A DNA stretch of 43,184 bases from Eubacterium sp. (GTDB taxonomy: Bacteria; Bacillota; Clostridia; Lachnospirales; Lachnospiraceae), in the NCBI GenBank assembly GCA_017477505.1, contig JAFUVQ010000022.1, forward strand, positions 1 through 43,184, read 5' to 3'. How positions within the stretch are numbered: the stretch's first letter is position 1; every line of letters begins with the position of its first letter. The notes under the pieces are model-generated. The model saw only the letters and a list, made by a program, of their open reading frames with translations. It had not been told where the DNA came from and searched no databases. Of the stretch, positions 19,241 to 38,248 are shown in pieces. Made by a program: the position numbers and the translations under genes.

Positions 19241-19275
19241 AAAAAAGTGGCAGTCTGACCTTAAATCAGACCGCC
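19241..19275 (-). terminator. Terminator of the export/transport operon
   Basis: TCAGACCGCC (19266-19275) and GGCAGTCTGA (19249-19258) pair over ten bases (one G-U in the minus-strand RNA), loop of seven, followed on the minus strand by a run of seven T. It ends the eight-gene unit that stops at 19311. Confidence 0.85.
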
Positions 19276-19278
19276 ATC

Positions 19279-19308
19279 ATTATAACACAGGAATTTCTTC
19301 GCTGTCAC
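19279..19308 (-). promoter_or_regulatory. Predicted promoter for the small membrane protein
   Basis: Minus strand GTGACA (19308-19303), 18-base spacer, TATAAT (19284-19279). RNA would start near 19272, inside the first arm of the terminator hairpin, so promoter and terminator share bases. Confidence 0.5.
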
Positions 19309-19310
19309 AT

Positions 19311-20408
19311 TCATTTATTACCCGTTTTGACAGTAAACTCCAGCCTGTTCACTTTTAGTTCCTTATCATAACTGTATTCAGTACTGCCTGCCATACCATT
19401 TATCATCATAAGAGAAATCTCATTGTCCGTATCCTTTATGTCAAAAGCTTTTCCCTTGTAAATGATAGTAACAAGACAGCTTCCGTCCTGAACGGAGTAT
19501 TCTGTCTTAACATTTATATCAGGCTTCTTATACTTCGGAATCAGAATCTGCTGAACAGTTTCCTCGATAACAAGTTTGATACGTGTTTTATCTGAAGATG
19601 GAACATCATTCTGCATAAAATACTGATCAAGACGTGCAGCGAATCCGATAAAGTCATAATCCCTGTCTTTAATATCCTCCTCGAATATCTTCAGCTTCTT
19701 AATAAATCTTCTGGTCAGTTCCTTCTTTGGATTTTCAAATATTTCTTCCGGTGTACCCTCTTCATAGATACCGCCTTCATCCATATAAAAAACCCTGTTT
19801 GAGATAGCTTTTGCAAATGACATCTCATGCGTGACAATAAGCATGGTCTTTCCGCTTTTGGAAAGTTCTCTTATAACCGCCTGCACTTCATATACCATAG
19901 TCGGGTCCAGTGCGGAGGTCGGTTCATCCAGAAGCAGGACTTCAGGATCCATGCAGAGCGCTCTGGCTATGGCCACCCTCTGCTTCTGTCCGCCTGACAA
20001 CTCATCGGGATAAGCAAGCATTTTGTCTGCAAGTCCCACTCTCTTAAGATATTCCACAGCAGTCTTATAAGCTTCATTTTTGCTCTTCTTAAGAAGGTCC
20101 ATAGGAGCAAGCATCAGGTTTTCTATTACAGTAAGATGCCCGAACAGATTAAATGACTGGAAAACCATTCCCATCTTCTGTCTGATCTTTCCGGCGTCCG
20201 CACCCTTCGCCGTGATTTCCTCTCCATTCAGAGCTATCACACCCGAGGTTGGCTTCTCCAGAAGATTAATACACCTCAGAAATGTGGATTTGCCCGTTCC
20301 CGACGGTCCGATAACAGATATCACATCACCGTCATTTATAGTTACATTTACATCCTTAAGAGGTGTTACTCCGTCATATTCTTTCTTCAGGTTCTTAATC
20401 TCAATCAT
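19311..20408 (-). CDS. Amino-acid-type ABC ATPase fused to an RsbW-like domain
   Basis: 365 residues. Residues 1-240 are a complete GlnQ/HisP-type ATPase: Walker A GPSGTGKS (34-41), Q-loop FQSFNLF, signature LSGGQ (137-141), Walker B LLLDEP (158-163), switch His194. Members of this family normally end here. About 120 extra residues follow (243-365). They resemble the anti-sigma kinase (RsbW/HATPase_c_2) fold: helix IKLVIEETVQQILIP, strand GSCLVTIIYKGKAFDI, then ISLMMINGMAGSTEYSY and a final strand. The N-box Asn is Gln and the G1 Asp is Tyr, so ATP binding there looks lost. The start at 20408 has GGGGGTGG upstream and overlaps the permease gene by eight bases; a start further upstream is not supported. 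A terminator follows. Confidence 0.85.
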   Translation of the reverse strand: MIEIKNLKKEYDGVTPLKDVNVTINDGDVISVIGPSGTGKSTFLRCINLLEKPTSGVIALNGEEITAKGADAGKIRQKMGMVFQSFNLFGHLTVIENLMLAPMDLLKKSKNEAYKTAVEYLKRVGLADKMLAYPDELSGGQKQRVAIARALCMDPEVLLLDEPTSALDPTMVYEVQAVIRELSKSGKTMLIVTHEMSFAKAISNRVFYMDEGGIYEEGTPEEIFENPKKELTRRFIKKLKIFEEDIKDRDYDFIGFAARLDQYFMQNDVPSSDKTRIKLVIEETVQQILIPKYKKPDINVKTEYSVQDGSCLVTIIYKGKAFDIKDTDNEISLMMINGMAGSTEYSYDKELKVNRLEFTVKTGNK

Positions 20409-22014
20409 CTGTATCCACCCCCTTAAGAATGTCCTCTCTCTTTCGTCTCTTCGGGTCGATTCCAATCTCCAGTTTTCCTATGAGGAAGGTCATCAGAGCC
20501 CCGAGTATGAAGTAGATCACAGCAACTGATATAAGTGGAAAGAAAGGTTCATAGGTACGTCCTCTCACTATATCTCCCATCTTTGTAAGATCCTGCACTG
20601 CGATATATCCTACGATGGCAGTTGCTTTTACAAGAGAGATCATTTCACCCTTATAAGCAGGAAGAAAATGAGGCACTGCCTGCGGAAGTATGATCCTGAA
20701 GAAGCTCCTGATATCACTGTAGCCGAGTGCCAGAGCCGCTTCCTTCTGCCCCTTATCGACAGCGCCCACACCTGTCTTCAGCATTCCGAAAACTCCCGCG
20801 CCGAAGACAAATGAAAATGCAACGATGGAAACCACCGTACCGCTTATTTCCGTCTTTCCGAATATGACATAGTATAAGATCATCAGGAGCACTACGACCG
20901 GCATTCCCTGTATGAGCCATACAAAAAACTTTGCGAATATGTTTGCCGCTTTATTACCGTTTCTGCATGCCATATAAAGAAGAAAACCGAGTACTGTTCC
21001 GAATACTATAGAAAGAACAGTTATCAGGATTGTTGTCAGTATTCCCGAGATAAAAAGCTTATATCTGTCCTCACGTATGAAGGTCTTATCAAAGCTTGAC
21101 TTTACTGCACTCCAAAGGGAAGCATCTTTAGCTTCCGCTTTCGCGGAACGGACAATAAGGACAAAGGCTGCAGGATAATAGTCCACGAAATCCATCTTTT
21201 CCTTACGTTCGTCGGTTACAACGATGGAGCCGCAGGCCATATCTGATTTGCCGGACTCAACCGCAGCGAGGGCCGCTGCAAAATCCATCCCGGTAAATGT
21301 AACGTGAATATCAAGTTCCTTTGCCATAAGGAGTATTATCTCACAGTCAAAACCGCAAAGTTCTCCGTCTTCACCCACATAACTCATGGGCTGCAGTGTA
21401 TCACAGGCCGCAACAGTTACTGCCCCGGCTTCTCCCGGCCAGTCCTGCTCCATCATGACTTTAACGCTTTCATCGGCACCGGTCCATTTGTCCCAGAGCT
21501 CATCTATGGTTTCCTTAGGAATCTTCTCATAGGCAGTCTGCCAGTCAGGGCATCTCTCATCTCCCTTTTTGAAGGCTATACCAAATGTACTCTCTCCAAG
21601 ATTCTCCGGGAAGAGAGCAAGTCCGGAATCTTTATTTATGGCCAGAGCAGCAACTGCATTATTTATCAGCCCTGCATCCGTTTTGTGGGATTTCAGTCCC
21701 AGGAGCATATCCGCCATTGATGTATAGTATGTAAATTCCTTCACGTCCGGTGCTTTTGAAGATATCTTTTCTTCAAAAGGTGCGCCCGTAAGCATGGAAA
21801 CGGTTTTTCCGTTCAATTCATCAAAGCTCGCAAGCTCGGGCTGCCCCTTTCCATTCTCATCACCATCTCCGGCATCAGTAACTCCATTCTCTGCCTCAGT
21901 AACACCTTCAGCATCATTACCTGCTGCCGCAACGCCGACAGGCGCAAAAATAACAGCTGCTATAAAAGCAGCTATTATTAAAAAGGATACATATTTCATA
22001 TCAAATCTTTTCAT
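20401..22014 (-). CDS. Amino-acid ABC substrate-binding/permease fusion
   Basis: 537 residues. A signal/anchor helix (about 8-30) is followed by an Asp/Glu/Gly-rich spacer, a periplasmic-type binding region (61-290) and a HisM/GlnP-like permease (about 320-515) with the EAA loop at 422-445 (GQKEAALALGYSD, then LPQA). The binding region seems to have its lobes in swapped order: residues 61-180 look like the usual second lobe (LNGKTVSMLTGAPF through DELWDKW), residues 198-290 like the usual first lobe (GFDCEIILLMAKEL, MDFVDYYPAAF). With the ATPase encoded next it makes a complete importer for a polar amino acid or similar solute. GAGGG lies about eight bases before the start. It sits 25 bases after the double-glycine peptide gene. 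Confidence 0.85.
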   Translation of the reverse strand: MKRFDMKYVSFLIIAAFIAAVIFAPVGVAAAGNDAEGVTEAENGVTDAGDGDENGKGQPELASFDELNGKTVSMLTGAPFEEKISSKAPDVKEFTYYTSMADMLLGLKSHKTDAGLINNAVAALAINKDSGLALFPENLGESTFGIAFKKGDERCPDWQTAYEKIPKETIDELWDKWTGADESVKVMMEQDWPGEAGAVTVAACDTLQPMSYVGEDGELCGFDCEIILLMAKELDIHVTFTGMDFAAALAAVESGKSDMACGSIVVTDERKEKMDFVDYYPAAFVLIVRSAKAEAKDASLWSAVKSSFDKTFIREDRYKLFISGILTTILITVLSIVFGTVLGFLLYMACRNGNKAANIFAKFFVWLIQGMPVVVLLMILYYVIFGKTEISGTVVSIVAFSFVFGAGVFGMLKTGVGAVDKGQKEAALALGYSDIRSFFRIILPQAVPHFLPAYKGEMISLVKATAIVGYIAVQDLTKMGDIVRGRTYEPFFPLISVAVIYFILGALMTFLIGKLEIGIDPKRRKREDILKGVDTDD

Positions 22015-22039
22015 TTAAGTTATCCCTCAACCAAATAAC

Positions 22040-22333
22040 CTACCATTTAACATCATCGCCGTATACAATAACACCATATTTCTTGCACTTTGGATTGGTG
22101 CATTTAAACATTCCTGTGTTCCCACCAATTTTTCTGACCTGGTCAATAAATCTGAGCGGGAAGTTACAGGTTGTACAGTATGCTAATGGAATATTTCCTG
22201 TCGAACTTGCGGTCGAGGACGAGAAAACCGCTCCGGTTCCCTTGTCTAAAGACTTACCTGAAGTTCCTCCGGACACTCCGTCAAGACTTTCAAGGTCAAT
22301 TTCAGTATCAATTCTTTCATTTTCATTTGCCAT
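22040..22333 (-). CDS. Double-glycine leader peptide with zinc ribbon (putative export cargo)
   Basis: 97 residues from the ATG at 22333, chosen because GGGGAG lies seven bases upstream; the frame is open further upstream, but that part overlaps the exporter gene and has no ribosome binding site. Residues 1-23 are a polar, acidic leader ending in LESLDGVSGG, the classic double-glycine site cut by C39 peptidases. The predicted mature part (24-97) has a Ser/Thr/Gly-rich stretch, then a compact C-terminal unit with C53-x2-C56 and C78-x4-C83, a zinc-ribbon-like arrangement. It lies 49 bases after an exporter gene and two genes from a C39 peptidase exporter. I infer a secreted peptide, possibly a bacteriocin or signal, of unknown activity. 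No modification enzyme is visible nearby. Confidence 0.75.
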   Translation of the reverse strand: MANENERIDTEIDLESLDGVSGGTSGKSLDKGTGAVFSSSTASSTGNIPLAYCTTCNFPLRFIDQVRKIGGNTGMFKCTNPKCKKYGVIVYGDDVKW

Positions 22334-22382
22334 AATCATTCTCCCCTTCTTTAAGTATTCGTTTTTTAAAAAGAGCAACACT

Positions 22383-24572
22383 TTATACTGCGCTGTCCAG
22401 CCTCTGTCTTTCCACAAGTTCTGAAAAAACCCCATTTTTCTCTATCAGCTCATCATAAGTTCCGTCCTCGACTATGCGGCCGCCATCCAGTACAACAATA
22501 CGGTCACAATGCCGTATAGTAGACAGTCTGTGGGCAACAACAATCCGGGTGCAGCCCATAGAATCAAGTGCATCGGAAACCTGCTTCTGCGTCTTGTTAT
22601 CGAGAGCTGAAGTTGCTTCATCAAAAATAAGCAGTTTTGGTTTTGGCGCTATGGCACGGGCAATCATAAGTCTCTGTTTCTGACCTCCCGAAATACCGCC
22701 CTGTCCTTCCGATATCATAGTATACATACCCATAGGCATTTCACGGATATCATTAGCTATACTTGCCTTCTCAGCCGCTTCCCAGGCATCATCAAGAGAG
22801 AGGTTTGGTACAGTGATGGATATATTGGAATAGATATCTCCCTGAAACAACCCTCCATCCTGGGTAACACTTCCTATCTTTCGCCGGAGAGATCCGACAT
22901 CAATTGTGTTAATATCTTTATTATCATAATAAATGGCGCCCTTCTCAACAGTTTCAAAGCCGAGAAGAAGTCTTATAAGCGTGGACTTTCCGCATCCTGT
23001 ACGCCCGACTATCGCCACATATTCCCCCGGTCTTACCTTCAGGCAAAGATCATTTAGTATATACGGGCTGCCGGTATTATATCTGAAATAAACATGATCC
23101 AGTTCTACCCTTCCGGAGATTTCGGTTAATATCTCTCTGTTCTCTGCCGTTTCGGGAGCAGTCTTCAGGAATGGCTGTGCCATCTCAAGTATAGGTCTTA
23201 TCTCAGCAACCGAAAGAGCGATTCCGGAAAGAGATGAAAACGCCCCCATGACTGCACCGTAGGATGCGATAAACGCAAAGTACGATGACTGATCCACACC
23301 ATTCTTCACCGCCAGATAATACAGTATGATAGTTGAGAAAAGATTAATTGCCAGAGTGATAACATCACTCATATTAAGAAATACAGGCGGGTTATATACA
23401 AGGTCCGCACCTTCAGAGTAAAGGTTGAGCCATCTGGCAAAAACTCTTTTTTCAGCTCCGGCAAGCTTAATCTTCTGAATACCCGTTATCATGGAATAAC
23501 TCAGCCCGGATTCTTTTGCACTTATCTCCCTCTGTTTTCTGCTGATACCTGTCTGAAGCAGTGTTACAATAACCGAAAAGCCTACCGTAACAAGTATTAT
23601 AAGTATAGAGGGCTTAAAAAGAGCAGGTGCAAACTGAAATATCTGGGTTATATACAAAAGCGACCCCAGGGATGTGAGCCCCATCGTCAGAATCATATTC
23701 AGAAAATATGAGCAGAGCTCATTTACTGCCATGGATCTCGTCTTCAGTTCACCGGGACTGTGCTCCCTGAAAAAGCTGACCGGCAAAGACATAATACGGA
23801 TCATCATTGATGATTCAACCGCAAGAGAAATCTTAAACTGAAGCCTTTTGTTGAGCAGAGTGCTTATAGAGCCGATAAGATGTGATGATAAAGACACACA
23901 TACCAAAAGTATGGCAGCTCCGATAAGTGCCATATTCCTTCCACTGGATAAAACAGGCCCTGTCACAGCTGCTGTTGTACGAGGAATCAGAAGCCCCACG
24001 AGTGACACGGCAAAAGTTGACAGCAGAACAAAAAGAATATCAGTCTTCGATATACAGGAATACATATAAATGAGAAGATCGGATATACTTAGTTCCCTCT
24101 GGGGCATCGGCTTATAAAAACAGATGGCATCAAGTTCGATCAATTCCGCCGTTTTTTTGTCGAGCCGGACTTTTTCTCCCGTTTCATGATTTATATAGAA
24201 ATAGCCATATAAAGGATTAGGAATAAGTGCTACCGGAGTAACATTTTCCTTCAAAAAGCCGAGAAGCGGTCCATAGGAATCCTTATACCAGCCCTCTGTG
24301 AGTTCCACATTACGGCGCATCATGCCATAGCGTCTGAGACAGTAATCCATCTGTTCGTCAGCCGTATCAAGCGATTCAGGCACTTCCACAGGCTTCAGAT
24401 GATAGAATTTCAGAACCTCATCTATCGCCTGCTTGGTAACTATCCTGTCATCATTGAGACGCTGGGCAATCCTCTGTCCCAGCACAACTCCCGCTATCTT
24501 CTGAAAGGAATCCTCCAAAGCTTCTAAGTCGGCTTCTCTTCTTTCATTTATTTGTTCCTCAAACCAACCCAA
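22383..24572 (-). CDS. NHLM-type peptide exporter, ABC transporter 2 (no peptidase)
   Basis: 729 residues. An N-terminal region of about 150 residues precedes a six-helix ABC exporter membrane domain and a C-terminal ATPase: Walker A GRTGCGKST, signature GGISGGQKQR, Walker B LLIFDEATSALD, switch His in VAHRLST. The N-terminal region (WFEEQINERREADLEALE, later VALIPNPLYGYFYINHETG) is like the second ABC protein of NHLM (nitrile-hydratase-leader microcin) export cassettes and has no C39 active site. Start is TTG with GGAGGA seven bases upstream. It most likely pairs with the C39 exporter encoded 54 bases upstream to move the leader peptide across the membrane. Confidence 0.9.
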   Translation of the reverse strand: MGWFEEQINERREADLEALEDSFQKIAGVVLGQRIAQRLNDDRIVTKQAIDEVLKFYHLKPVEVPESLDTADEQMDYCLRRYGMMRRNVELTEGWYKDSYGPLLGFLKENVTPVALIPNPLYGYFYINHETGEKVRLDKKTAELIELDAICFYKPMPQRELSISDLLIYMYSCISKTDILFVLLSTFAVSLVGLLIPRTTAAVTGPVLSSGRNMALIGAAILLVCVSLSSHLIGSISTLLNKRLQFKISLAVESSMMIRIMSLPVSFFREHSPGELKTRSMAVNELCSYFLNMILTMGLTSLGSLLYITQIFQFAPALFKPSILIILVTVGFSVIVTLLQTGISRKQREISAKESGLSYSMITGIQKIKLAGAEKRVFARWLNLYSEGADLVYNPPVFLNMSDVITLAINLFSTIILYYLAVKNGVDQSSYFAFIASYGAVMGAFSSLSGIALSVAEIRPILEMAQPFLKTAPETAENREILTEISGRVELDHVYFRYNTGSPYILNDLCLKVRPGEYVAIVGRTGCGKSTLIRLLLGFETVEKGAIYYDNKDINTIDVGSLRRKIGSVTQDGGLFQGDIYSNISITVPNLSLDDAWEAAEKASIANDIREMPMGMYTMISEGQGGISGGQKQRLMIARAIAPKPKLLIFDEATSALDNKTQKQVSDALDSMGCTRIVVAHRLSTIRHCDRIVVLDGGRIVEDGTYDELIEKNGVFSELVERQRLDSAV

Positions 24573-24626
24573 TACTTATTCCTCCAAGCCTCACCCGGGA
24601 TAATTATAGTGAGATTTTACCTTAGC

Positions 24627-26828
24627 CTACTCATTTGCTACAAGCTCGGCATAAAATCCTTCACGTTTCATCAGTTCATCATGTGTGCCACTCTCAACAA
24701 TTTTGCCATGATCCAGCACGATAATATTGTCGCAGTCCCTGACCGTAGACAGTCTGTGAGCAATCACCAGGCAGGTGATTCCCCTGTCTTTTATGGAATT
24801 AACCACATCATATTCTGTTCTCGCATCAAGAGCACTTGTTGCCTCATCAAGAATGATTATGGTAGGATCCTGAGCCAGAACTCTTGCAATCTCCATACGC
24901 TGTCGCTGACCTCCCGAGAGGTCTTTTCCACCGGATGCCAGCTTATGCTTATAACCTCCCTGCATCTGAAGTATATCATCATGAAGCTGGGCATCTCTTG
25001 CAGCCATTATGACTTCAAAATCCTTGATGGACTCATCCCACATACGTATATTAGCTTCTATAGTATCTTCAAAAAGTATAATATCCTGATCGACTACAGC
25101 AACCGATCCGGTTACCACATCTCTCGGAAATGAATTTCTCGGTCTTCCGTCAAACTTCACCTGCCCGCTCCATGGCTGATAAAGTCCCGAGATCAATTTT
25201 GAAAGCGTAGACTTTCCACAGCCGGACGCACCTACTATGGCAACTCTTTCGCCGGGCTCTATACTGAGTGAAAAATCCTTTATAAGCGGCGGCTCCAGCC
25301 TTGAATATCCAAAGGTAATATTATCAAGCTCGATTTTTCCGCTTAGTTTATATATATCCCCTTCGGATTTGTCATTTTCGGAGACTGCGATATCCAGCGC
25401 CGGATCATCCGGATATTCCATAACATCCTCAACTCTTTCCATCTCGGTGTGCATCTCCTGAATATTCTGTCCCGCCCTTATAAATGTAGTAGCCGGAGTC
25501 ATAAATGAATTGAGAAGCCCCTGGAACATAAGAACCCCGCCAAGGGTAAAACTTCCTCTCATAATCATATAAACACCGAGAATCAGAACGGTATAATCCG
25601 CCATCAGACTGAAGAAGACAGGAAGGTTGCCCAGATACATCTCAGTCTTGGCGCTTCTGGAATTCTGAAGATTTACAGACGCCTGGTAGCCAGACCATTT
25701 CTTAAAGAAACCATTTTCCGCTCCACTGGCCTTGATGGTTTCGATCATCTCTATTCCTGTAACAGTAGCCGACTCAAGTTTTCCCGCATCTCTCATCTCA
25801 ACCCTGGCTATACTCACGTGCCTGGCGGAAATAATACCGGATATGAAGAAATTCAGCATCAGCGTCGTCAGTCCTACAACCGTCAGGAAAGCACTCTGCT
25901 TCAACATAAAAAACAGATAGAATATAACCATAAATGAATTGAGCAGGAGAGGCGCAAATATATTTACCAGAGTTTCCGCAACCGAGGCATTCAGATAAAG
26001 TCTGCTCTGAATATCTCCCGCAAGTCTCTGGGAATAAAATTCTACCGGAAGTCTCAGTAACTTCCACATATATGTGCAGCTGCCGATAGCGGCCATCTTG
26101 CCATTTATCCTAATGGAATAAACAGTCTTGGCCCATGCAATTATAAGCTGGATGATTGCAAACAGAATCAATATATAAATAAAAGGATTAAGCCATTCAC
26201 GGTTAAGGCCTGTGAGCAGCCTGTCCATAAATATACTTGATGTCACGGAATCGATAATTCCGAAAAGATAAGAAATGGCTGTCGTTATCATGACAAATGC
26301 CACAGCGGCACCTGCTCCGACCAGCCTCTTTTTTGCAAATGAAATTGTACTCTTGGGTTTTCCTTCGGGTTTGAAATCCTCCGAAGGAACAGGCACAATA
26401 CAAACACCCGTGAAAGCCCTGTCAAACTCTTCCCAACTGACAGTGATATTTCCACGGGCAGGATCATTTATATAGACTTTTTTACCACGAAACCCTTTCA
26501 GAACCACAAAATGATTCATGTTCCAATGAATTATACAGGGGAACCGGCCTTCATCCCTGACAACATCCGGACTCCTCTTATATGCTTTAACATCAAAGCC
26601 GTAGTTCTGAGCAGTCAGATAAATATTTTTTGCTTTAGAGCCATCTCTGGAAACGCCGCAATCTTTCCTTACCTTTTCCAGAGGTACCCATTTGCCATAA
26701 TAAGCCATGATCATCGCAAGAGCCGCCGCGCCGCATTCCAACGATTCAAGCTGCATGACAACAGGTACCCTGGCCACTCCTTTAGCAACCGGCTCAGGTG
26801 TTTTTTTCCTGTTTCTCATGATGCTCAC
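24627..26828 (-). CDS. NHLM-type peptide exporter with C39 leader peptidase
   Basis: 733 residues. The N-terminal C39 peptidase domain (about 20-150) has all catalytic residues: Gln26 and Cys32 in QLESLECGAA, His106 in WNMNHFVVL, Asp122 in INDPARG. It cuts leaders after Gly-Gly on the cytoplasmic side. The membrane domain (about 170-460) and ATPase follow: Walker A GASGCGKST, signature DLSGGQRQR, Walker B IILDEATSALD, VIAHRLST. The GTG start at 26828 overlaps the stop of the HlyD-like gene (GTGA); an ATG three codons later (26819) with AGGTGAG upstream is an equally good start. Its likely cargo is the double-glycine peptide encoded at 22040-22333. Confidence 0.93.
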   Translation of the reverse strand: MSIMRNRKKTPEPVAKGVARVPVVMQLESLECGAAALAMIMAYYGKWVPLEKVRKDCGVSRDGSKAKNIYLTAQNYGFDVKAYKRSPDVVRDEGRFPCIIHWNMNHFVVLKGFRGKKVYINDPARGNITVSWEEFDRAFTGVCIVPVPSEDFKPEGKPKSTISFAKKRLVGAGAAVAFVMITTAISYLFGIIDSVTSSIFMDRLLTGLNREWLNPFIYILILFAIIQLIIAWAKTVYSIRINGKMAAIGSCTYMWKLLRLPVEFYSQRLAGDIQSRLYLNASVAETLVNIFAPLLLNSFMVIFYLFFMLKQSAFLTVVGLTTLMLNFFISGIISARHVSIARVEMRDAGKLESATVTGIEMIETIKASGAENGFFKKWSGYQASVNLQNSRSAKTEMYLGNLPVFFSLMADYTVLILGVYMIMRGSFTLGGVLMFQGLLNSFMTPATTFIRAGQNIQEMHTEMERVEDVMEYPDDPALDIAVSENDKSEGDIYKLSGKIELDNITFGYSRLEPPLIKDFSLSIEPGERVAIVGASGCGKSTLSKLISGLYQPWSGQVKFDGRPRNSFPRDVVTGSVAVVDQDIILFEDTIEANIRMWDESIKDFEVIMAARDAQLHDDILQMQGGYKHKLASGGKDLSGGQRQRMEIARVLAQDPTIIILDEATSALDARTEYDVVNSIKDRGITCLVIAHRLSTVRDCDNIIVLDHGKIVESGTHDELMKREGFYAELVANE

Positions 26829-27244
26829 CTGCTTCCCAGAAGAAAACTGATAGGATGTATCTCTTCAACTACTATCTCCGCATCATAAGTACCGTCCGGA
26901 AGAGATACCTGGGCAACAGCAACAGTCCTGCCGTAGTCATCTTCTTCAAGTTCTGAAATAATATATTCTCCGGAAGCCACACGCAGTGTCATTCCTGTCT
27001 TCAGTTCCTCATCATCCGAGGATATAACGGCTACAGAAGCTCTCCCATCCGATACAACCGCCTTCGCTTCTTTAGTGGTTTCAAGAACACCGACAGCAGA
27101 CCAGACAAGAATGCCTGTAAGTAATAGGACAATCGATGCAAGAACAATCCAGATACCGGGAGTAGTTACCCTCAGATATTCTGAAAGCTGTTCCGGCGAA
27201 GATATTCTGTCCATAGCTTTTTTTCTGAAGACACTTTTTGCCAT
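26825..27244 (-). CDS. Short HlyD-like secretion protein of NHLM systems
   Basis: 139 residues. The N-terminus (FRKKAMDRISSPEQLSEYLRVT) is characteristic of the NHLM-system membrane fusion protein. One membrane helix follows (about 33-55), then a small beta-rich outer domain. Full-length relatives are roughly 250-400 residues with a long coiled coil that is missing here, so this is a short form that could act as a periplasm-free adaptor or chaperone for the exporter. GGAAAG lies before the ATG, two bases after the stop of the phosphatase gene, and its own stop overlaps the start of the C39 exporter gene, which indicates translational coupling. Confidence 0.75.
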   Translation of the reverse strand: MAKSVFRKKAMDRISSPEQLSEYLRVTTPGIWIVLASIVLLLTGILVWSAVGVLETTKEAKAVVSDGRASVAVISSDDEELKTGMTLRVASGEYIISELEEDDYGRTVAVAQVSLPDGTYDAEIVVEEIHPISFLLGSR

Positions 27245-27246
27245 AA

Positions 27247-28701
27247 TTACTTTCCTTTGTATTCAAGACACAGCATAGTCAAGTCATCAAACTGCGGAGC
27301 TTCCTTTACAAAATCATCAACAGCAGCACGAACAACACCCAGAACATCCTTTGGAGAATCGCCTCCGGATATATTAAGCGCATCGATCATTCTGTCTGTT
27401 CCGAAAAGTTCATCATCAGAATTCATTGCTTCAGCAACACCGTCTGTGTAAATAAAGAGCTTTGAACCCGGATCCATTTGAAGCTCATACTCTGTATATT
27501 TTGCCAATTCAAATGCACCTACAACAAGTCCATGCTTATCCTTAACAAGTTCAAAAGGACCATCCGGCTTCTTTATAGCAGGATATTCATGTCCGGCATT
27601 TGCGGCAACAAGCTTTCCCGATGAAAGATCAAGGCAGCCGTACCACACCGTTACGAACATTTCTTCAGGATTATTGGCGCAGATCTGTCGGTTAGTTGAC
27701 TCAAGAACCTCTTTAGGGCTGAGACCCATCATGGCATAGTTCTGCACAAGTATCTTTGAAACCATCATGAAGAGAGCCGCCGGAACGCCCTTTCCGGAAA
27801 CATCCGCCATTACTATCCCCAGATGTGAATCATCAATAAGGAAGAAATCATAAAAATCCCCACCGACTTCCTTCGCAGGATTCATGGACGCATAGATACT
27901 GAACTCCTCCCTTTCAGGAAATGCAGGGAAAATATTCGGCAGAGTATCAGCCTGAATCCTTGTTGCCATGGAAAGCTCGGTATCCAGTCTTGCTGTCTCC
28001 TTCTGCTGTTCCTCATATCTCTTGGTCTGAATACTGATAATGACATAACTCAGATAAGCCGCAGATAGTACAGTTGAAAGTATTATGAACTGTACTTCAG
28101 AGAAAAACAACTGAAGAATTATAGCTCCGAAGGGAGCCAGCATATATCCCCACAATGCTGTGGCAAGCTTAAAATCAAACTTGTCTCTGTACCTGATAAG
28201 AAGGAATATATTCTGAATGATCATAACAACCTGAACAAGGTTTGAAAGAGCATATGTGCCTGCACGATGATATACATTTGCATCATCAAAATAATAGTAC
28301 AGATTGGTATACTGAGCCAGAATCAGCATGGCTACATGAATACCAAGGAGCACCAGGAAAACTATCCCCACAACCTTACTGGTTTTTCCGGGATTGGCCA
28401 CATAAAGAATCATCAGCGAGATCATGTAGATCATAAATCCGGTTACCAGGAACTCTATAAAAGTTACTGCTCTGATACCTATGTTTATTCCTAATCCCGG
28501 CTGCCCTTCAAGCATGATTCTTGTAAGGTGCATAGTTATATAAATGATAATAAAGCTGAAGAAAACCTGGAAATAACGTTTTATATCTTTGTTGATATGC
28601 ATTCCCGCACTTACCTGCATAAGACTCATACTACAGATTCCTACACCGGCAGATATAAACATGACATTTATCAGATTTCCCCAGGAAATGCCAAATTCCA
28701 T
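27247..28701 (-). CDS. Membrane-bound SpoIIE-type PP2C phosphatase
   Basis: 484 residues. About six to seven membrane helices (residues 10-225) are followed by a linker helix (RYEEQQKETARLDTELSMA) and a PPM/SpoIIE phosphatase domain (about 245-482). Metal-binding motifs: Asp282 in VGGDFYD, Asp300 in MADVSGKG, FIYTDGVAEA, and the final DDLTM. Enzymes of this type dephosphorylate STAS anti-sigma antagonists, and the gene for such a protein lies directly upstream (45 bases). The membrane part probably senses a signal or the exporter state. It is followed without a gap by the export genes. Confidence 0.9.
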   Translation of the reverse strand: MEFGISWGNLINVMFISAGVGICSMSLMQVSAGMHINKDIKRYFQVFFSFIIIYITMHLTRIMLEGQPGLGINIGIRAVTFIEFLVTGFMIYMISLMILYVANPGKTSKVVGIVFLVLLGIHVAMLILAQYTNLYYYFDDANVYHRAGTYALSNLVQVVMIIQNIFLLIRYRDKFDFKLATALWGYMLAPFGAIILQLFFSEVQFIILSTVLSAAYLSYVIISIQTKRYEEQQKETARLDTELSMATRIQADTLPNIFPAFPEREEFSIYASMNPAKEVGGDFYDFFLIDDSHLGIVMADVSGKGVPAALFMMVSKILVQNYAMMGLSPKEVLESTNRQICANNPEEMFVTVWYGCLDLSSGKLVAANAGHEYPAIKKPDGPFELVKDKHGLVVGAFELAKYTEYELQMDPGSKLFIYTDGVAEAMNSDDELFGTDRMIDALNISGGDSPKDVLGVVRAAVDDFVKEAPQFDDLTMLCLEYKGK

Positions 28702-28746
28702 TAATATTCCATTTCTCCCAAAATCTAAGGGTTTACTGATTGACTG

Positions 28747-29046
28747 CTACTCTATTGTAAGAATATCCGAAAAACCTGTAACCTCAAATATCTCAAGTAT
28801 TTCACTAGTACAATTCTTAACAACCATACTTCCCTGCTTATTCATTTTCTTCTGAGCTGAAAGAAGAACTCTGAGTCCTGCAGATGATATATATGAAAGC
28901 TCTGCAAAATCAAAAGTAAGTGCCGTTACACCATCAATACTCTCGTTGATTGACTGCTCAAGTTCAGGTGATGTTGTTGTATTGAGTTTACCTGAAACCT
29001 TGATATCGAGATTACTTCCATCCTGTTTCTTTTCGATGTTTAACAT
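28747..29046 (-). CDS. STAS-domain anti-sigma factor antagonist
   Basis: 99 residues, the size of SpoIIAA/RsbV-like proteins. The conserved phospho-serine region is SYISSAGLRVL (Ser54/Ser55), and the fold pattern (IKVSGKLN, LTFDFAEL, VVKNC, FEVTGFSDIL) is complete. The start at 29046 has GGAGGG seven bases upstream; the frame extends ten codons further, through the ribosome binding site, and that start is rejected. Such proteins bind an RsbW-type kinase when unphosphorylated. No free RsbW kinase is encoded beside it; the only candidate partner in the apparent operon is the RsbW-like tail of the ABC ATPase at 19311-20408. It is the first gene of the eight-gene unit. Confidence 0.9.
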   Translation of the reverse strand: MLNIEKKQDGSNLDIKVSGKLNTTTSPELEQSINESIDGVTALTFDFAELSYISSAGLRVLLSAQKKMNKQGSMVVKNCTSEILEIFEVTGFSDILTIE

Positions 29047-29209: not shown

Positions 29210-31312
29210 TCAGTTTACACTGAAAAGCAGCTGTCCGTAGCTTGGGAATGGCCAGTCTCTCTGTGATGTCAGCATTTCCGCTTCATCAACATACTTACGG
29301 AGTGAATCCATTGCAGGAAGCATCTCATCTCTTACATAAGCCGATGACTTAAATACATCATCAATGGTCTTAAACTCTGCAAGAACATCTTCAAGCTTCA
29401 TAACTGCCTCAAGAATACAATCTGTAAGTTCAGAAAGTCTTTCCATAGTGGTCACTTCATAATTGCATTTTACTTTATCACTTACTTCTCTCATAAGTTT
29501 GGTCGTCTCTGCCAGTCTGAAAAGATATCTCTCTATTGCAGGAAGGTAATTCTTACGAACCATATCAACCATGGTAAGGCCTTCGATATTAACCGTCTTC
29601 ACATAGTTTTCAAGCATGATCTCGCATCTTGACTGAAGCTCTGCCTCTGTGAATACCTTATGAGCCATAAGCATATCCATATTATTCTTATCAAGAAGAT
29701 GAGGCATTGCATCTGCTGTAGTCTTAAGATTGGAAAGTCCTCTTACTTCCGTAGCCTCTTTTATCCATTCATCACCATAACCGTTTCCGTCAAAGAGTAT
29801 CCTCTGATGCTCTGTGATGACTCTCTTTATAAGGTCATGAAGTGCGGTCTCAAAATCAGCTGCGCCTTCAAGCTCATCTGCATACTGACGAAGGCTCTCT
29901 GCCACTGCTGCATTCAGCATGATGTTGCAGCATGCGATACTGTTTGATGAACCGAGTGATCTGAACTCGAACTTGTTACCTGTAAATGCAAATGGCGAAG
30001 TTCTGTTTCTGTCGGTAGTATCTCTGCTGAATCTTGGAAGACTGTGAACTCCCAGCTTCATGATAACTTTTTCGGTACCCTCATATGGCTTGTCTTCTCT
30101 TATGGCGTCAAGTATGCCTGTAAGTTCATCGCCGAGGAAGATTGAAATGATTGCAGGAGGCGCTTCATTTGCACCGAGTCTGTGGTCATTTCCGGCGGTT
30201 GCAACCGAGAGTCTGAGGAGGTCCTGATAATCATCGACCGCCTGAATTACTGCAGCAAGAAACAGGAGGAACTGAGCATTTTCATAAGGTGTCTTGCCGG
30301 GTGAAAGAAGATTCACACCTGTGTCTGTTGCTATGGACCAGTTATTATGCTTACCGGAACCGTTTACACCTGCAAATGGTTTTTCATGGAGCAGACATTC
30401 CATACCATGTCTTGCTGCAACCTTCTTCATAATCTCCATGGTAAGCTGATTACTGTCTGTTGCGACATTTGTCGTTGAATATATCGGAGCAAGCTCATGC
30501 TGTGCCGGAGCAACCTCATTATGTTCTGTCTTTGCAAGTATTCCCAGCTTCCAGAGCTCATTGTTGAGGTCTTCCATAAATTCAGTTACGCGAGGCTTGA
30601 TGACTCCGAAATAGTGATCATCCATTTCCTGACCTTTAGGAGGCATAGCTCCGAAAAGGGTTCTTCCGGTATATTTAAGATCCGGTCTCTTGTTAAACAT
30701 TTCCTTGTCAACCAGGAAGTATTCCTGCTCCGGACCTACTGAAGTTCTTACATATTTCACATCTTCATTTCCGAAGAGTTTGAGGATTCTTTTCGCCTGT
30801 CTGTTGATGGCCTGCATAGAGCGAAGAAGCGGTGTCTTCTTATCCAGTGCCTCACCTGAATATGAGCAGAAAGCTGTTGGAATGCAGAGTGTATGATCCT
30901 TTATGAATGCATAGGATGTAGGATCCCATGCTGTATATCCTCTCGCTTCAAATGTAGCTCTGAGCCCTCCCGAAGGAAAACTTGATGCATCAGGCTCACC
31001 CTTAATAAGCTCCTTACCTGAAAACTCCATCAGGACTCCACCATCCGGTGAAGGGGATATAAAACTGTCATGCTTCTCGGCTGTAACACCTGTAAGAGGC
31101 TGAAACCAGTGAGTAAAATGAGTAGCTCCGTTTTCAATGGCCCAGTTTTTCATCTCCTCAGCAACTGCATCTGCAACCGCATCATCAAGCCTTGCATTTT
31201 CATCAATGGTCTTCTTGAGTGATGAATAAACCTCATCCGAAAGCCTTGATCTCATTTCCCTGTCATCAAACACCAGTGAACCAAAAAGCTCAGGTACATT
31301 CTTCTTTTCCAT
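29210..31312 (-). CDS. glnN: Glutamine synthetase type III
   Basis: 700 residues, the size of GS III (type I is about 440). It joins ammonia to glutamate using ATP. Family blocks visible: [53 protein letters not shown], the [10 protein letters not shown] block with its histidine, [15 protein letters not shown] (catalytic flap), [18 protein letters not shown]. Start 31312 has GGAGGA seven bases upstream; the frame extends upstream to 31426 but through the leader hairpin, so that is rejected. It has its own promoter and a terminator hairpin in the leader, which suggests attenuation by nitrogen state. It is followed by a terminator. Confidence 0.96.
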
Positions 31313-31343
31313 AATGTGAGTCCTCCATATCCAAAATAACAAA

Positions 31344-31380
31344 AAAGGCGTCTCAGAGGATAATCCTCTAAGACGCCTTT
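31344..31380 (-). promoter_or_regulatory. Leader terminator (attenuator) of glnN
   Basis: Two 17-base arms (31344-31360 and 31364-31380) pair fully, with one G-U in the RNA, around a three-base loop; six T follow on the minus strand. It lies between the promoter and the start codon, ending 31 bases before the ATG, so it must be bypassed for expression. Stem base AAAGGCG is shared with the pyrG leader. Confidence 0.75.
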
Positions 31381-31397
31381 GTCTTCTACAGTCACGT

Positions 31398-31426
31398 ATG
31401 ATACTCCTTGAAAATAAGATTGTCAA
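31398..31426 (-). promoter_or_regulatory. Predicted sigma-A promoter for glnN
   Basis: Minus strand TTGACA (31426-31421), 17-base spacer, TATCAT (31403-31398). RNA would start near 31391, about ten bases before the leader hairpin. Confidence 0.75.
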
Positions 31427-31450
31427 GGATTTTTTTGTGGTTAAATCCGT

Positions 31451-31479
31451 TTGACCTCTTTTATTTATAATGCTAAAAT
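31451..31479 (+). promoter_or_regulatory. Predicted promoter of the DUF4143 ATPase gene
   Basis: TTGACC (31451-31456), 17-base spacer, TAAAAT (31474-31479) preceded by TGC. The -10 box overlaps the left arm of the first palindrome, so a protein bound there would block it. Confidence 0.65.
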
Positions 31480-31498
31480 ATGCACAAATGCATATTTT
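31475..31498. repeat. Palindromic operator, copy 1
   Basis: AAAATATGCA (31475-31484), four bases, TGCATATTTT (31489-31498): a perfect inverted repeat overlapping the -10 box. Confidence 0.65.
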
Positions 31499-31507
31499 AA
31501 GTGGGTT

Positions 31508-31531
31508 AAAATATGTATCTATGCATATTTT
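31508..31531. repeat. Palindromic operator, copy 2
   Basis: AAAATATGTA (31508-31517), four bases, TGCATATTTT (31522-31531): the same palindrome with one mismatch. Its centre is 33 bases from that of copy 1, about three helical turns. It ends directly at the ribosome binding site GGAGG. Confidence 0.6.
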
Positions 31532-31543
31532 GGAGGTTTTTCT

Positions 31544-32866
31544 ATGAGTGCTATCGATTTAAGACGTGAAGTCACTGATAAATTTAAAGAATGGAAGACT
31601 GCACAAAATCACAAATGTCTGCTTGTCAGAGGTGCAAGACAAGTAGGTAAAACCTACGCTATAGAACATTTCTGTAAAGAAGAATATGATTCTTTTATTG
31701 AAATTAATTTTCTTGAAAGTCCCTCTATGAAAATGATTTTCTCCGGAAACCTTGATGTCAAAACTATAAAAACTAATATTTCTCTATATATTCCAAACAG
31801 CAGGTTTATTCCCGGAGCAACATGTCTTTTTCTTGACGAAATTCAAGAGTGCCCTGAAGCAATCACTGCACTAAAGTTTCTCGAAAAGGAAAATGATTTT
31901 GATATAATCGCATCAGGTTCAATGCTTGGGATTGACTATAAACGACCAGCATCTTATCCGGTTGGGTCTATCCAATATATTGATATGTTTTCTCTAAGCT
32001 TTAGGGAGTTTTTATATTCAATCGGAATAACTGATGACATTATTAATACTTTAAAAGAGTATTATGACAGTAAATCTATCGTGCCATGGGCAATACATGA
32101 CAAAATCATGGAATATCTAAGACTTTATATGATCATTGGAGGTATGCCGGAAGTTGTAAAGGTTTACTCCGAAACTGCTTCTTTTACAGAAGCAGACAAA
32201 AAAGTTCGAAACATCCTGAATGACTATCGATATGATATAGCTCATTATGCATCTGCAGATGTGAAAATCAAAGCTGAATCCTGCTACTTCTCTTTATCCA
32301 GACAGCTCTCAAAAGAGAATCATAAATTTATGTATTCGAATGTTGAAAAAGGTGGAAACGCCAGAAAATACGGTTCTAGTATTGACTGGCTGGAAGGCGC
32401 ATACTTAATCAAAAAAATACATAACATTTCCGGATATGATATCCCTCTGGTCAGTCAAAGAATCGATGACAATTTCCGTGTTTACCCTACCGATATAGGT
32501 CTTCTCCTGGGAATGTATGATCATTCGGTAAAGGAACTTATACTTCATCCTGAAGATAACAAAATAAACCCGATGTTAAAAGGCGGACTATACGAAGCTG
32601 TTGTGGCAGATATGCTTATCAAAAACGGACATAATGACATATATTTCAGAAAAGACGAATCCTCTACATTTGAGATTGAATTCTTTATTGAAAATAAAGG
32701 AAATGTTCTTCCCATTGAAGTAAAATCCGGCAGGAGCAGAGCCAAATCCTTGGATAACCTTTTAAAACGGGATGAAATTCCGTACGGATACAAGCTTATT
32801 AACGGAAATACAGGGGTATCTGACAAAAAAATAACAATGCCCCTTTATATGGCAATGTTTATTTAA
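31544..32866 (+). CDS. AAA ATPase with DUF4143 domain
   Basis: 440 residues. P-loop RGARQVGKT at 29-37 and Walker [10 protein letters not shown] at 94-102 belong to the AAA_14 group. The C-terminal DUF4143 region ends with FEIEFFIEN and [11 protein letters not shown] (about 385-410), which resembles a PD-(D/E)xK nuclease core. Such proteins are common single accessory genes in anaerobes, with no well-established function; stress, mobile element or toxin-like roles have been proposed. Start 31544 has GGAGG seven bases upstream; the frame extends upstream into the operators but has no binding site there. It is the only plus-strand gene in a minus-strand nitrogen cluster, AT-richer than its neighbours, with its own promoter, operators and terminator, which suggests later insertion. 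Confidence 0.85.
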
Positions 32867-32868
32867 AA

Positions 32869-32897
32869 AATACCAGAGAGAAAGCCTCTCTGGTATT
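32869..32897. terminator. Bidirectional terminator between DUF4143 and ANTAR genes
   Basis: AATACCAGAGAG (32869-32880) and CTCTCTGGTATT (32886-32897) pair perfectly over 12 bases around a five-base loop, with A run on the left and T run on the right. It touches the stop codon of the ANTAR gene. Confidence 0.85.
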
Positions 32898-33470
32898 TTA
32901 ATCTATGATATCCTCTGCAACCTGACGTTTTGTAAGACCGTTGTTCATAGCCTCGCGGATTATATATTCGTGTGCTTCCTCTTCGGTCATTCCTTTCTCG
33001 ATAAGCTTTATCTTGGCGCGGCTGACTACCTTCAGCTCGTCCATCTTATCCTCAAGGGTCCGGACCTGTTTTCTCATCCTGGAAACCTTACGGTTAATTG
33101 CAAGGAACAGCCTTATGCTCTTCTCCAGATCACCCTTCCTCATGGGCTTTGCCATGGCGATAACGCCGTAATCGATGAGGTGATTCATCACATTTGTCTG
33201 AATCTCAGCAGGCACTACGATTATTACTCCGGAGCTATGTTTCTCGGCTACATCAAGAACAAAGTCCGTCCCCATTCCGTCCGAAAGGGGCGAATTAACC
33301 AGCACTATATCGTACTCTCTGATGAGCAGCTCCCGACGCGCAGCCGAAGCACTCTTCCTGAATTCGATGGTACTGAATCTGTTATCCGGAAGAGCCTTCT
33401 GGGCTATTATATTGAATTGTTCAGATGACGATACTATAAGTATCGAGCTCATATCTGATTTGTTGCTCAT
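32898..33470 (-). CDS. ANTAR-domain antitermination regulator with pseudo-receiver
   Basis: 190 residues. Residues 8-125 have a receiver fold, but the acidic pocket reads IVSSSE and the acceptor aspartate is Asn59 (VLVNSPL), so it cannot be phosphorylated in the normal way; Lys108 is kept. A coiled coil (about 125-148) leads into an ANTAR domain (about 136-190: VSRAKIKLIEKGMTEEEAHEYI, then AMNNGLTKRQVAEDII). ANTAR proteins bind paired hairpins in leader RNA and prevent termination, often at nitrogen genes in clostridia (established for the family). The start at 33470 is chosen for GAGTGG upstream; an earlier GTG has no binding site. It follows the GS-like gene by 86 bases. Likely targets are nitrogen-gene leaders such as that of glnN. 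Confidence 0.88.
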   Translation of the reverse strand: MSNKSDMSSILIVSSSEQFNIIAQKALPDNRFSTIEFRKSASAARRELLIREYDIVLVNSPLSDGMGTDFVLDVAEKHSSGVIIVVPAEIQTNVMNHLIDYGVIAMAKPMRKGDLEKSIRLFLAINRKVSRMRKQVRTLEDKMDELKVVSRAKIKLIEKGMTEEEAHEYIIREAMNNGLTKRQVAEDIID

Positions 33471-33556
33471 TTTACCACTCTCGAATAAAACCACGTAAAC
33501 GAATAGTATTAATTACGAAATCCCGTCGGAGCTTCCACAGGAACGCTTACCGGGGC

Positions 33557-34726
33557 TCAAATGTATTTATCAATAATCGCCTTGGGCAGTATAGATTTTA
33601 CAAAGTCACTTGTCTCTGCGATGGACTTTGCTTCCTTCCTTGATTTTGGAAGAAGCGCACTTTCTTCATCCATTTCCTTTGGAAGTTCAAGTTTTTTCTC
33701 AATGCCATAAAGGCCGGCATATATAAGAAGCGCATATGCAAGATACGGGTTGCTGAGTGCATCGGGTGAACGGAGCTCCACCCTGGTCTTTCCATAAATC
33801 TCATCGATATGCATCAGCTCTGATCCGCTGGCACTTGACCAATTGACCTTGCTCGGAGCAGTACCTGTACCAAACCGGTTATATGAGCCGTCAGTAGGGT
33901 TGAGGAATATAGTTATATCCTTCATTTTCTCCATAATTCCGGCAGCTGCGTATTTTACAACATCCTCGCCATTCCTGTCCTTGGCATAGATATTGATATG
34001 ATATCCATTTCCCGGCTTGTCAGAGATCGGCATAGGTGAAAAGTCGGCATAAAGTCCGTTTCTGTCCGCAACAGTAGAAACAACCATCTTAAATGTAGTC
34101 ATCTGATCTGCAGCCTTAAGCGGCTTTCCATAGTGGAAGTCGATTTCATTCTGTCCAGGTCCTCTCTCATGATGAGACCTCTCCGGTGCAAGCCCCATCT
34201 CTTCGATGATAAGGCATATCTCTCGTCTTATATTCTCGCCTCTGTCAAGCGGCGCGATATCCATATAGCCGGCATTGTCATACGGAATCCTGGTAGGCTT
34301 TGCCTCATCGTCAGTCCTGAAAAGATAGAATTCAATCTCTGAACCGAACTTAAATTCTATGCCTGCATCTTCCGCTGCCTTAACCGCATTCTTCAGAATA
34401 TTTCTTGTATCTGCTTCAAATGGAGTGCCATCTGCATGGCATACGTCACAGAACATCCTGAGAACCCTTCCCGAATCCGGTCTCCACGGAAGAACTGACA
34501 GAGTCTCCGGGTCCGGTCTCAGGTAAAGATTCGCTTCCTTTGTTCCTTCGAATCCCCTGATAGCTTTGGCATTAATAGCTATGCCATCTTTAAAAGCCTT
34601 ATGAATCTCACTCGGCATTACAGAAATATTCTTCTGAATTCCATATGCATCTCTGAAGGCCAGACGTATAAACTTCGCGTCTTCCTCCTCGATATATTCC
34701 ATTATTTCCTGTTCCGTGTAGATCAT
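33557..34726 (-). CDS. Divergent type I glutamine synthetase homologue
   Basis: 389 residues against about 440 for type I GS; the C-terminal 50 residues are missing. The beta-grasp start (KFIRLAFRDAYGI) and many site residues are present: Glu130 and Glu132 (GSEIEF), Glu194 (NEIDF), His243 (GNGYHIN), Arg284 (GSYNR), Glu317 and Arg319 (RVELRSPD). However, the catalytic flap glutamate of the usual G-x-E-A-P is Thr289 (GTGTAP), and the NRS arginine motif is replaced by SGSELMHID. So it may make a related gamma-glutamyl product, or act as a sensor, rather than make glutamine. It sits upstream of the ANTAR gene and downstream of carB, with weak promoter boxes in the 141-base gap. AGGTAGGA precedes the start. 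Confidence 0.85.
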   Translation of the reverse strand: MIYTEQEIMEYIEEEDAKFIRLAFRDAYGIQKNISVMPSEIHKAFKDGIAINAKAIRGFEGTKEANLYLRPDPETLSVLPWRPDSGRVLRMFCDVCHADGTPFEADTRNILKNAVKAAEDAGIEFKFGSEIEFYLFRTDDEAKPTRIPYDNAGYMDIAPLDRGENIRREICLIIEEMGLAPERSHHERGPGQNEIDFHYGKPLKAADQMTTFKMVVSTVADRNGLYADFSPMPISDKPGNGYHINIYAKDRNGEDVVKYAAAGIMEKMKDITIFLNPTDGSYNRFGTGTAPSKVNWSSASGSELMHIDEIYGKTRVELRSPDALSNPYLAYALLIYAGLYGIEKKLELPKEMDEESALLPKSRKEAKSIAETSDFVKSILPKAIIDKYI

Positions 34727-34823
34727 ATTCCTACCTCATCACTTCTATCTTTTTACTTTTTCTATCATCCGAACACCTTACCAGTCCTGACCATCCCATA
34801 ATACTGAACTGTTTCTGTAACAT

Positions 34824-34853
34824 ATCATAGCATCGGACTGTCAGGTAGAACAA
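34824..34853 (-). promoter_or_regulatory. Possible promoter for the GS-like and ANTAR genes
   Basis: Minus strand TTGTTC (34853-34848), 18-base spacer, TATGAT (34829-34824), about 100 bases before the start codon. The long leader contains no terminator I can recognise. Weak -35. Confidence 0.35.
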
Positions 34854-34867
34854 TTTAGTAACCTGCA

Positions 34868-38236: not shown

Positions 38237-38248
38237 GATATATTCCTT

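What the first reader, a model, noticed from the sequence alone, without database searches (positions are those of the whole stretch)
19311..29046. Eight-gene unit joins a partner switch, an NHLM-type peptide exporter, its cargo and an amino-acid-like ABC transporter
Seen: STAS, SpoIIE-type phosphatase, short HlyD-like protein, C39 exporter, second exporter, double-glycine peptide, binding/permease fusion and ABC ATPase follow each other on one strand with gaps of 54 bases or less or overlaps, one promoter-like site before and one strong terminator after. Known: NHLM cassettes pair two ABC proteins and an HlyD-like protein. Inference: the switch regulates export or transport directly. A complete importer as part of a peptide export operon, perhaps for resorption or sensing of a product or precursor, would be a new type of system.
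Basis: partly seen in the sequence, partly recalled or inferred. Interest (0 to 1): 0.8.

Follow-up and report, generated by a model that had tools for sequence, protein, structure and literature searches.

The report
Partner switch coupled to two transporters
A gut-type bacterium carries one gene unit in which a protein switch normally known from controlling gene expression is packed together with a peptide exporter and an amino-acid importer, and the importer's motor protein carries a disarmed copy of the switch's kinase, which suggests that the switch may control transporters directly.

Summary
As one system the octet is not conserved: no such importer lies within 10 kb in 40 NHLM2 exporter loci, and an exporter lies near only 3 of 120 importer loci. 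But both transporters are separately enriched for STAS and SpoIIE neighbours. The window's phosphatase type occurs with the importer alone, with the exporter alone and here with both. Complete kinase-STAS-SpoIIE sets flank an importer (L177) or follow an exporter (L149).
Best reading: a partner switch acts on transporters through STAS binding. Binding itself is untested. New variant of a known kind; interest 0.74.

The parts
28747..29046 (-). STAS-domain protein (anti-anti-sigma type) with intact phospho-Ser motif YISSAGLR
   Evidence: PF01740 1.7e-16; YISSAGLR invariant in 7 aligned STAS proteins, the others 51-73% identical to it
27247..28701 (-). SpoIIE/RsbU-type PP2C phosphatase with a multi-span membrane N-terminal half (residues 1-~225)
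   Evidence: N-terminal half has relatives of 54% identity or more in 10 of 60 other genus genomes (9 over the whole query, one over 170 residues), an eleventh over 73 residues
26825..27244 (-). short HlyD-like membrane protein with one membrane span, next to the NHLM-type exporter
   Evidence: TIGR03794 32.5 bits, model 1-79 of 421; relatives precede NHLM1 in many NHLM loci
24627..26819 (-). NHLM exporter subunit 1: C39 peptidase-permease-ATPase
   Evidence: TIGR03796 above cut-off
22383..24572 (-). NHLM-type exporter subunit 2: permease-ATPase without C39
   Evidence: TIGR03797 668.6 bits, below cut-off 709.4
22040..22333 (-). putative cargo: double-glycine leader peptide (97 aa) with a CxxC...CxxxxC zinc-ribbon-like core
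   Evidence: matches in 4 other of 61 genus genomes; GG and three cysteine columns invariant in 6 aligned peptides
20401..22014 (-). PAAT-type amino-acid importer: binding domain fused to permease
   Evidence: PF00497 and PF00528
19734..20408 (-). importer ABC ATPase domain (residues 1-225), GlnQ/TcyN-like
   Evidence: PF00005 6.6e-37
19314..19703 (-). C-terminal anti-sigma-kinase-fold pseudokinase domain of the importer ATPase (residues ~236-365)
   Evidence: fold; profile comparison; ATP-site residues lost
19248..19276 (-). intrinsic terminator, 13 pairs

Best explanation
A partner-switch operon whose targets are transporters. SHOWN by sequence or model: a membrane SpoIIE-type phosphatase and a STAS protein with an intact phospho-serine site are encoded in one unit with an NHLM-type peptide exporter, a double-glycine zinc-ribbon-like peptide and an amino-acid importer; the importer's ATPase ends in a domain with the fold of SpoIIAB/RsbW that has lost its ATP site. 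INFERRED: the phosphatase senses a signal and dephosphorylates STAS; unphosphorylated STAS docks on the pseudokinase domain, as SpoIIAA docks on SpoIIAB, and raises or lowers the ATPase's activity or assembly; a true kinase encoded elsewhere in the genome (three candidates) re-phosphorylates STAS and releases it. Co-transcription with the exporter, and perhaps direct contact of STAS with the exporter (STAS genes abut NHLM genes in several relatives), would place amino-acid uptake and peptide export under one switch.
Against: No binding was tested. Most importers with the domain have no partner-switch gene within 10 kb (91 of 120), among them the two loci whose ATPase is 77-80% identical to the window's (L018, L019), so the switch would have to act in trans or the domain serves something else. 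Of the relatives of the window's phosphatase type in the genus, several (L284, L289-L292) have none of the profiled genes around them. No kinase lies in the window's operon. The ATP lid, part of the STAS-binding face in SpoIIAB as I recall it, is missing from the domain. Nothing shows that STAS acts on the NHLM proteins themselves. Poisson tests treat loci as independent although some are related.
Confidence: 0.45

Rival explanations
1. Reverse flow: the importer is a sensor. Its pseudokinase domain binds or frees STAS according to transport state, and the freed STAS informs a kinase/sigma circuit that sets expression of exporter and peptide.
For: The domain has lost catalysis but keeps the fold, as expected for a titrating module; transporters as sensors are known (recalled).
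Against: No sigma factor in the operon; exporters in 40 of 40 NHLM2-chosen loci lack this importer nearby.
Confidence: 0.2
2. Purely transcriptional switch: STAS and SpoIIE act on an anti-sigma kinase elsewhere; the GHKL-like domain on the ATPase is only a dimerisation or stability module, like other C-terminal domains of ABC ATPases.
For: Three stand-alone RsbW-like proteins elsewhere in the genome; GHKL anti-sigma proteins dimerise (recalled); most domain-bearing importers have no partner-switch gene nearby (91 of 120).
Against: Repeated operons pairing partner-switch genes with GHKL-tagged transporters of unrelated families: ABC, SDF, MATE; enrichment of STAS next to transporters.
Confidence: 0.22
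3. Chance or island-driven juxtaposition: two independent modules, exporter plus switch and importer plus switch, met in this strain and share only a promoter.
For: The octet has no full match among the loci studied; each half exists alone.
Against: The same phosphatase type links both halves; two other loci join NHLM2, importer and STAS in other orders (L193, L237).
Confidence: 0.1
4. One reading: a dedicated export plus resorption or sensing machine for one peptide product.
For: Genes are contiguous.
Against: Importer is a PAAT amino-acid type by its matches, with no oligopeptide-type match listed, and is absent near 40 of 40 NHLM2-chosen exporters.
Confidence: 0.03

Closest known systems
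MlaFB (STAS protein MlaB bound to ABC ATPase MlaF)
   Same: a small STAS protein associated with an ABC ATPase that has an unusual C-terminal extension; phospho-site at the interface is discussed (PMC7367683, abstract and passages)
   Different: phospholipid transporter; whether MlaB is phosphorylated is open in that paper; no GHKL domain on the ATPase; its authors found no other STAS-ABC pair in their PDB set
RsbU-RsbV-RsbW / SpoIIE-SpoIIAA-SpoIIAB partner switches
   Same: PP2C phosphatase, STAS protein, GHKL fold; domain superposes on RsbW and SpoIIAB
   Different: GHKL domain has lost its ATP site and is fused to a transporter; no sigma factor and no intact kinase in the unit
SiaABCD pathway (SiaB fold match; partner switch with an enzyme target)
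   Different: target is a diguanylate cyclase (recalled), here a transporter carrying the GHKL fold itself
NHLM/NHLP export cassette (TIGR03794/03796/03797)
   Same: C39 exporter, second exporter, HlyD-like protein (PMC2887384 passages)
   Different: HlyD-like protein covers only the start of the model; second exporter below cut-off; cargo matches no NHLP or Nif11 model
GlnPQ/TcyJLN-type amino-acid importers
   Same: binding domain fused to permease, PAAT ATPase
   Different: C-terminal pseudokinase domain; binding-protein lobes in swapped order

Membership tests
NHLM export cassette | C39-permease-ATPase subunit TIGR03796 over cut-off | tested here: met
   882.9 vs 853.3 bits
NHLM export cassette | second permease-ATPase TIGR03797 over cut-off | tested here: not met
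   668.6 vs 709.4 bits, though it is the best family
NHLM export cassette | HlyD-like protein TIGR03794 over cut-off | tested here: not met
   32.5 vs 156.2 bits, positions 1-79 of 421
NHLM export cassette | NHLP or Nif11 leader on the cargo | tested here: not met
   no NCBIfam match to the peptide at E 0.1
Partner-switch module (RsbU/V/W type) | SpoIIE-type PP2C phosphatase | tested here: met
   PF07228 1.1e-50
Partner-switch module (RsbU/V/W type) | STAS protein with phospho-acceptor Ser | tested here: met
   PF01740; YISSAGLR invariant in 7
Partner-switch module (RsbU/V/W type) | intact GHKL serine kinase in the unit | tested here: not met
   none in the operon; three stand-alone candidates elsewhere in the genome
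Partner-switch module (RsbU/V/W type) | phosphorylation-dependent exchange of STAS between partners | not testable with these tools
   needs biochemistry
GHKL anti-sigma kinase family (HATPase_c_2) | GHKL anti-sigma fold | tested here: met
GHKL anti-sigma kinase family (HATPase_c_2) | ATP-binding residues: N-box Asn, G1 Asp, G2 glycines and lid | tested here: not met
   Asp replaced and G2/lid deleted in 105 of 105, Asn replaced by Gln in 90 of 105
GHKL anti-sigma kinase family (HATPase_c_2) | Pfam PF13581 gathering score | tested here: not met
   no match for the window domain; 2 of 9 relatives match weakly, best E 0.012; MATE-fused relatives in L193 pass it at 33.9 and 30.8 vs 27.4, those do not
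PAAT amino-acid importer | SBP_bac_3, BPD_transp_1 and ABC_tran domains | tested here: met
   the substrate-specific equivalog cut-offs listed were all missed (best 25 rows each)
MlaFB-like STAS-regulated ABC transporter | STAS protein bound to the ATPase | not testable with these tools
   no complex prediction available

The most novel reading that the evidence does not exclude
A class of partner switches whose output is transport itself. Gut and rumen Clostridia tag unrelated transporters (amino-acid ABC importers, SDF symporters, MATE exporters) with RsbW-fold domains, catalytically dead in the importers, as docking ports for STAS proteins, and attach STAS subunits to NHLM peptide exporters, so that one dephosphorylated STAS protein co-ordinates nutrient uptake and peptide export without any change in transcription. 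The window is a case with both an importer and an exporter under one switch.
Probability: 0.3. Interest if true: 0.88.

Novelty: new variant of a known kind. Interest (0 to 1): 0.74.

Why it matters
Partner switches are known mainly as controllers of sigma factors and gene expression (recalled). It also gives a candidate for how NHLM-type peptide exporters in Lachnospiraceae are controlled.

Tried and rejected
Pfam and PDB sequence searches with the domain alone: no significant family; PDB profile hits were chance-level (AcrIIA4 E 0.035) and were dropped in favour of the fold search. Idea that the domain is an active kinase: not supported by the residue census. Idea that the eight genes are a conserved system: rejected. 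First neighbourhood counts used a greedy ORF choice that hid some STAS genes behind antisense ORFs; one search repeats them with all ORFs and supersedes them (for the statistics).

Rows dropped: of 143 loci fetched for the importer, 124 hold a recognisable ATPase with the domain; 119 are distinct, plus the window. The other loci hold MATE, AMP-ligase or SDF fusions, contig-end fragments or frames below threshold. Counts near contig ends are lower bounds. The 40 exporter loci are the best NHLM2 hits (20 each), not all hits listed there. The 12 genomes used for STAS and SpoIIE density were chosen among NHLM2-bearing ones, partly after seeing neighbourhoods; that should raise the background. Their sizes are rounded in the output, the density came from Pfam models and the locus counts from the session's own profiles, and the same density was applied to importer genomes from other families: approximations.

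The session's GHKL profile was seeded with the L025 and L116 symporter domains and with MATE and AMP-ligase domains, so that finding those again with it is circular. Independent support: the first domain profile (A1) had found L116's symporter and the MATE and AMP-ligase proteins on its own, at E 4e-8 to 6e-4, and 8 symporter domains alone compare with the 10 intact kinases at probability 97.5 and with the importer domains at 97.5. The set of 24 fused domains holds one protein twice.

Literature: searches in the open-access library; no listed paper was on STAS or SpoIIE with NHLM exporters or on GHKL domains fused to transporters. Two returned nothing; five listed only part of their hits (66, 74, 75, 76, 93; e.g. 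12 of 181). Passages were read in PMC8256260, PMC2887384 and PMC7367683 (its abstract too). Subscription papers are not covered.

Substrate of the importer and role of the peptide: not resolved. The peptide was searched for in the genus only.
Full report
WHAT IS THERE. The unit lies on a 43,184-base contig (C57) that is the whole window, in a genome of 3.22 Mb. A same-genus genome (G766) holds a 5,917-base contig that shows the same genes, lengths and mirrored coordinates as a named record, uncultured Lachnospiraceae bacterium RUG12891, from which I infer that the family is Lachnospiraceae. Eight genes run on the minus strand from 29046 to 19311 with gaps of at most 54 bases. A 13-pair terminator follows (19276-19248) and a strong hairpin separates the unit from glutamine synthetase III upstream. 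The consensus scan did not find a promoter before STAS.

THE DOMAIN IS A PSEUDOKINASE. On a joint alignment, the Asp of the G1 box is Tyr (94) or Trp (11) in 105 of 105 distinct domains, the window's included; the G2 glycines and the ATP lid are deleted in 105 of 105; the N-box Asn is Gln in 90 of 105. All 10 intact kinases keep Asn, Asp and the G2 glycines. The window's unit therefore has no kinase of its own; three stand-alone HATPase_c_2 proteins over Pfam's cut-off lie elsewhere in the genome, one of them beside another SpoIIE gene and one beside a STAS gene (C65).

RELATED DOMAINS ON OTHER PROTEINS. The domain profile also found, at E 4e-8 to 6e-4, proteins that prove to be MATE transporters and AMP-binding ligases with a C-terminal GHKL-like domain and an SDF symporter with an N-terminal one. 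Their HATPase_c_2 matches are below Pfam's cut-off or absent, but two MATE fusions in L193 pass it. Eight symporter domains compared alone with the intact kinases give probability 97.5, seventeen rows of the others 98.3. In the fused domains other than the importer's the ATP-site residues are partly kept (G1 Asp in 11 of 24 rows). In four genomes of another family of the order the operon reads STAS - SpoIIE+GHKL - [GHKL-SDF symporter] - importer with the same domain, with no NHLM gene in the stretch held; in one of them (L078) the importer is split in two frames (L025, L074, L077, L078). In the order sample 56 of 392 genomes match the domain profile at E 0.001, the weakest of these being short RsbW-like frames and other proteins; in a phylum-wide sample 8 of 398, the own genome included, match at E 1e-6.

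IS THE OCTET CONSERVED? No. Among 120 distinct importer loci, the window included, NHLM2 lies within 10 kb in 3 (window, L193, L237) and any STAS, SpoIIE or further GHKL gene in 29. Among 40 loci chosen only by NHLM2, the importer lies within 10 kb in none, but STAS in 14, SpoIIE in 10, GHKL in 12, any of them in 18. The two importers closest to the window's (ATPase 77-80% identical, L018 and L019) have neither switch nor exporter in 15.7 and 11.3 kb. Background density in 12 genomes is 75 SpoIIE and 44 stand-alone STAS genes of 68 STAS matches in 39.6 Mb. Expected counts are 0.68 STAS and 1.15 SpoIIE for the exporter loci (P 2.8e-14 and 4.0e-7; for the 20 loci outside the genus 6 against 0.35 and 5 against 0.59), and 1.79 and 3.03 for the 119 importer loci (14 and 17 seen; P 7.5e-9 and 2.5e-8; with six loci of one clade removed 11 and 14 of 113, P about 2e-6 each). 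These tests ignore remaining relatedness.

ONE SWITCH, TWO CLIENTS. The window's phosphatase has a distinctive membrane half (residues 1-~225). In the genus 10 of the 60 other genomes carry a relative of 54% identity or more, an eleventh only a 73-residue piece. The nearest are in G759 (63%) and G766 (62%), followed by G011 (61%) and G026 (60%). Over the full length, among the loci compared, they are L177 (= G766, 70%), where the order is kinase-STAS-importer-SpoIIE on a 5.9-kb contig, and L136 (= G759, 72%), where it is kinase-STAS-SpoIIE-two cNMP/cyclase genes-HlyD-NHLM1-NHLM2-GHKL-like protein-zinc-ribbon peptide. G766 has no NHLM2 match at E 1e-110 (69% complete). L287 (G026) has kinase-STAS-SpoIIE, followed on the same strand by a second, longer STAS-containing frame and others, one with a weak symporter score; L296 has STAS-kinase-[GHKL-SDF]-SpoIIE, the last apparently split in two frames. 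Several others have none of the profiled genes around them (L284, L289-L292). So the same phosphatase type is found with the importer, with the exporter, with an SDF symporter and, here, with both. L149 carries HlyD-NHLM1-NHLM2-STAS-kinase-SpoIIE as six neighbouring genes on one strand; in L139, L142 and L146 a STAS gene directly precedes the exporter genes and in L156, L171 and L175 it directly follows them. L193 (Lachnospiraceae RGIG4995, roe deer rumen) has HlyD-NHLM1-NHLM2, three double-glycine peptides (one with a sub-threshold zinc-ribbon match, one CxxC-rich), the importer, two MATE-GHKL proteins and STAS on one strand, no SpoIIE in the stretch held; L237 has an NHLM2 gene cut by the contig start, double-glycine peptides, the importer's permease and ATPase, STAS and SpoIIE+GHKL.

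MECHANISM. The simplest reading is that STAS proteins, set by phosphatase and kinase, dock on transporters that carry a dead copy of the kinase fold. MlaB-MlaF is a solved case of a STAS protein bound to an ABC ATPase, and its authors ask whether phosphorylation controls it (PMC7367683, abstract and passages). Here the phosphatase is in the operon. Whether STAS raises or lowers activity, whether it touches the NHLM proteins, and whether information flows from switch to transporter or the reverse is not known.

CARGO. In relatives from three other same-genus genomes the peptide keeps a GG leader and a CxxxxC motif; the first cysteine pair is CxxC in two of them and a variant in the third (L297). 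A fourth relative, in L286, has an internal stop and was left out. L193's peptides share the leader and a CxxC more loosely. No modification enzyme is among the eight genes, so an unmodified zinc-ribbon miniprotein is the likeliest product; this is inference.

NOVELTY. The parts are known; the fusion of an anti-sigma fold without its ATP site to transporters, and the recurrent link of partner switches to NHLM exporters, did not appear in the papers listed by nine literature searches, several of them capped lists. New variant of a known kind.

Noticed in passing
window 21148-21870: The importer's binding domain has its two lobes in swapped order (residues 49-179 match the C-terminal half, 197-289 the N-terminal half of ordinary binding proteins). 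Of 108 related permease proteins 56 carry two binding units, 14 three or more, 38 one; the window carries one.
   Followed up: partly
window 22040-22333; L136:7661-7924; L193:6189-6428, 7485-7724: Double-glycine leader peptides with zinc-ribbon-like cores as likely exporter cargo; no Pfam or NCBIfam family over its cut-off.
   Followed up: partly
L136:8016-8642; L164:8284-8916: A soluble ~208-residue protein with a weakly GHKL-like N-terminal half sits beside NHLM2, and in L136 also beside the zinc-ribbon peptide; a frame of the same length and weak score lies near the peptide in L286; no Pfam match for the L136 protein.
   Followed up: partly
L112:718-2718; L114:5974-7977: AMP-binding ligases with a C-terminal HATPase_c_2-like domain below Pfam's cut-off, so the tag may not be limited to transporters.
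   Followed up: no
window 19279-19308: A near-perfect promoter-like site (11 of 12, TG before the -10) lies just before the unit's terminator, so that a start there would fall inside the hairpin.
   Followed up: no
window 29210-43035: The unit sits beside nitrogen genes: glutamine synthetase III (PF12437 and others) and, by eye from the start of the translations, a second glutamine synthetase, carbamoyl-phosphate synthase and an ammonium transporter. The importer's relatives were not checked for such neighbours.
   Followed up: no
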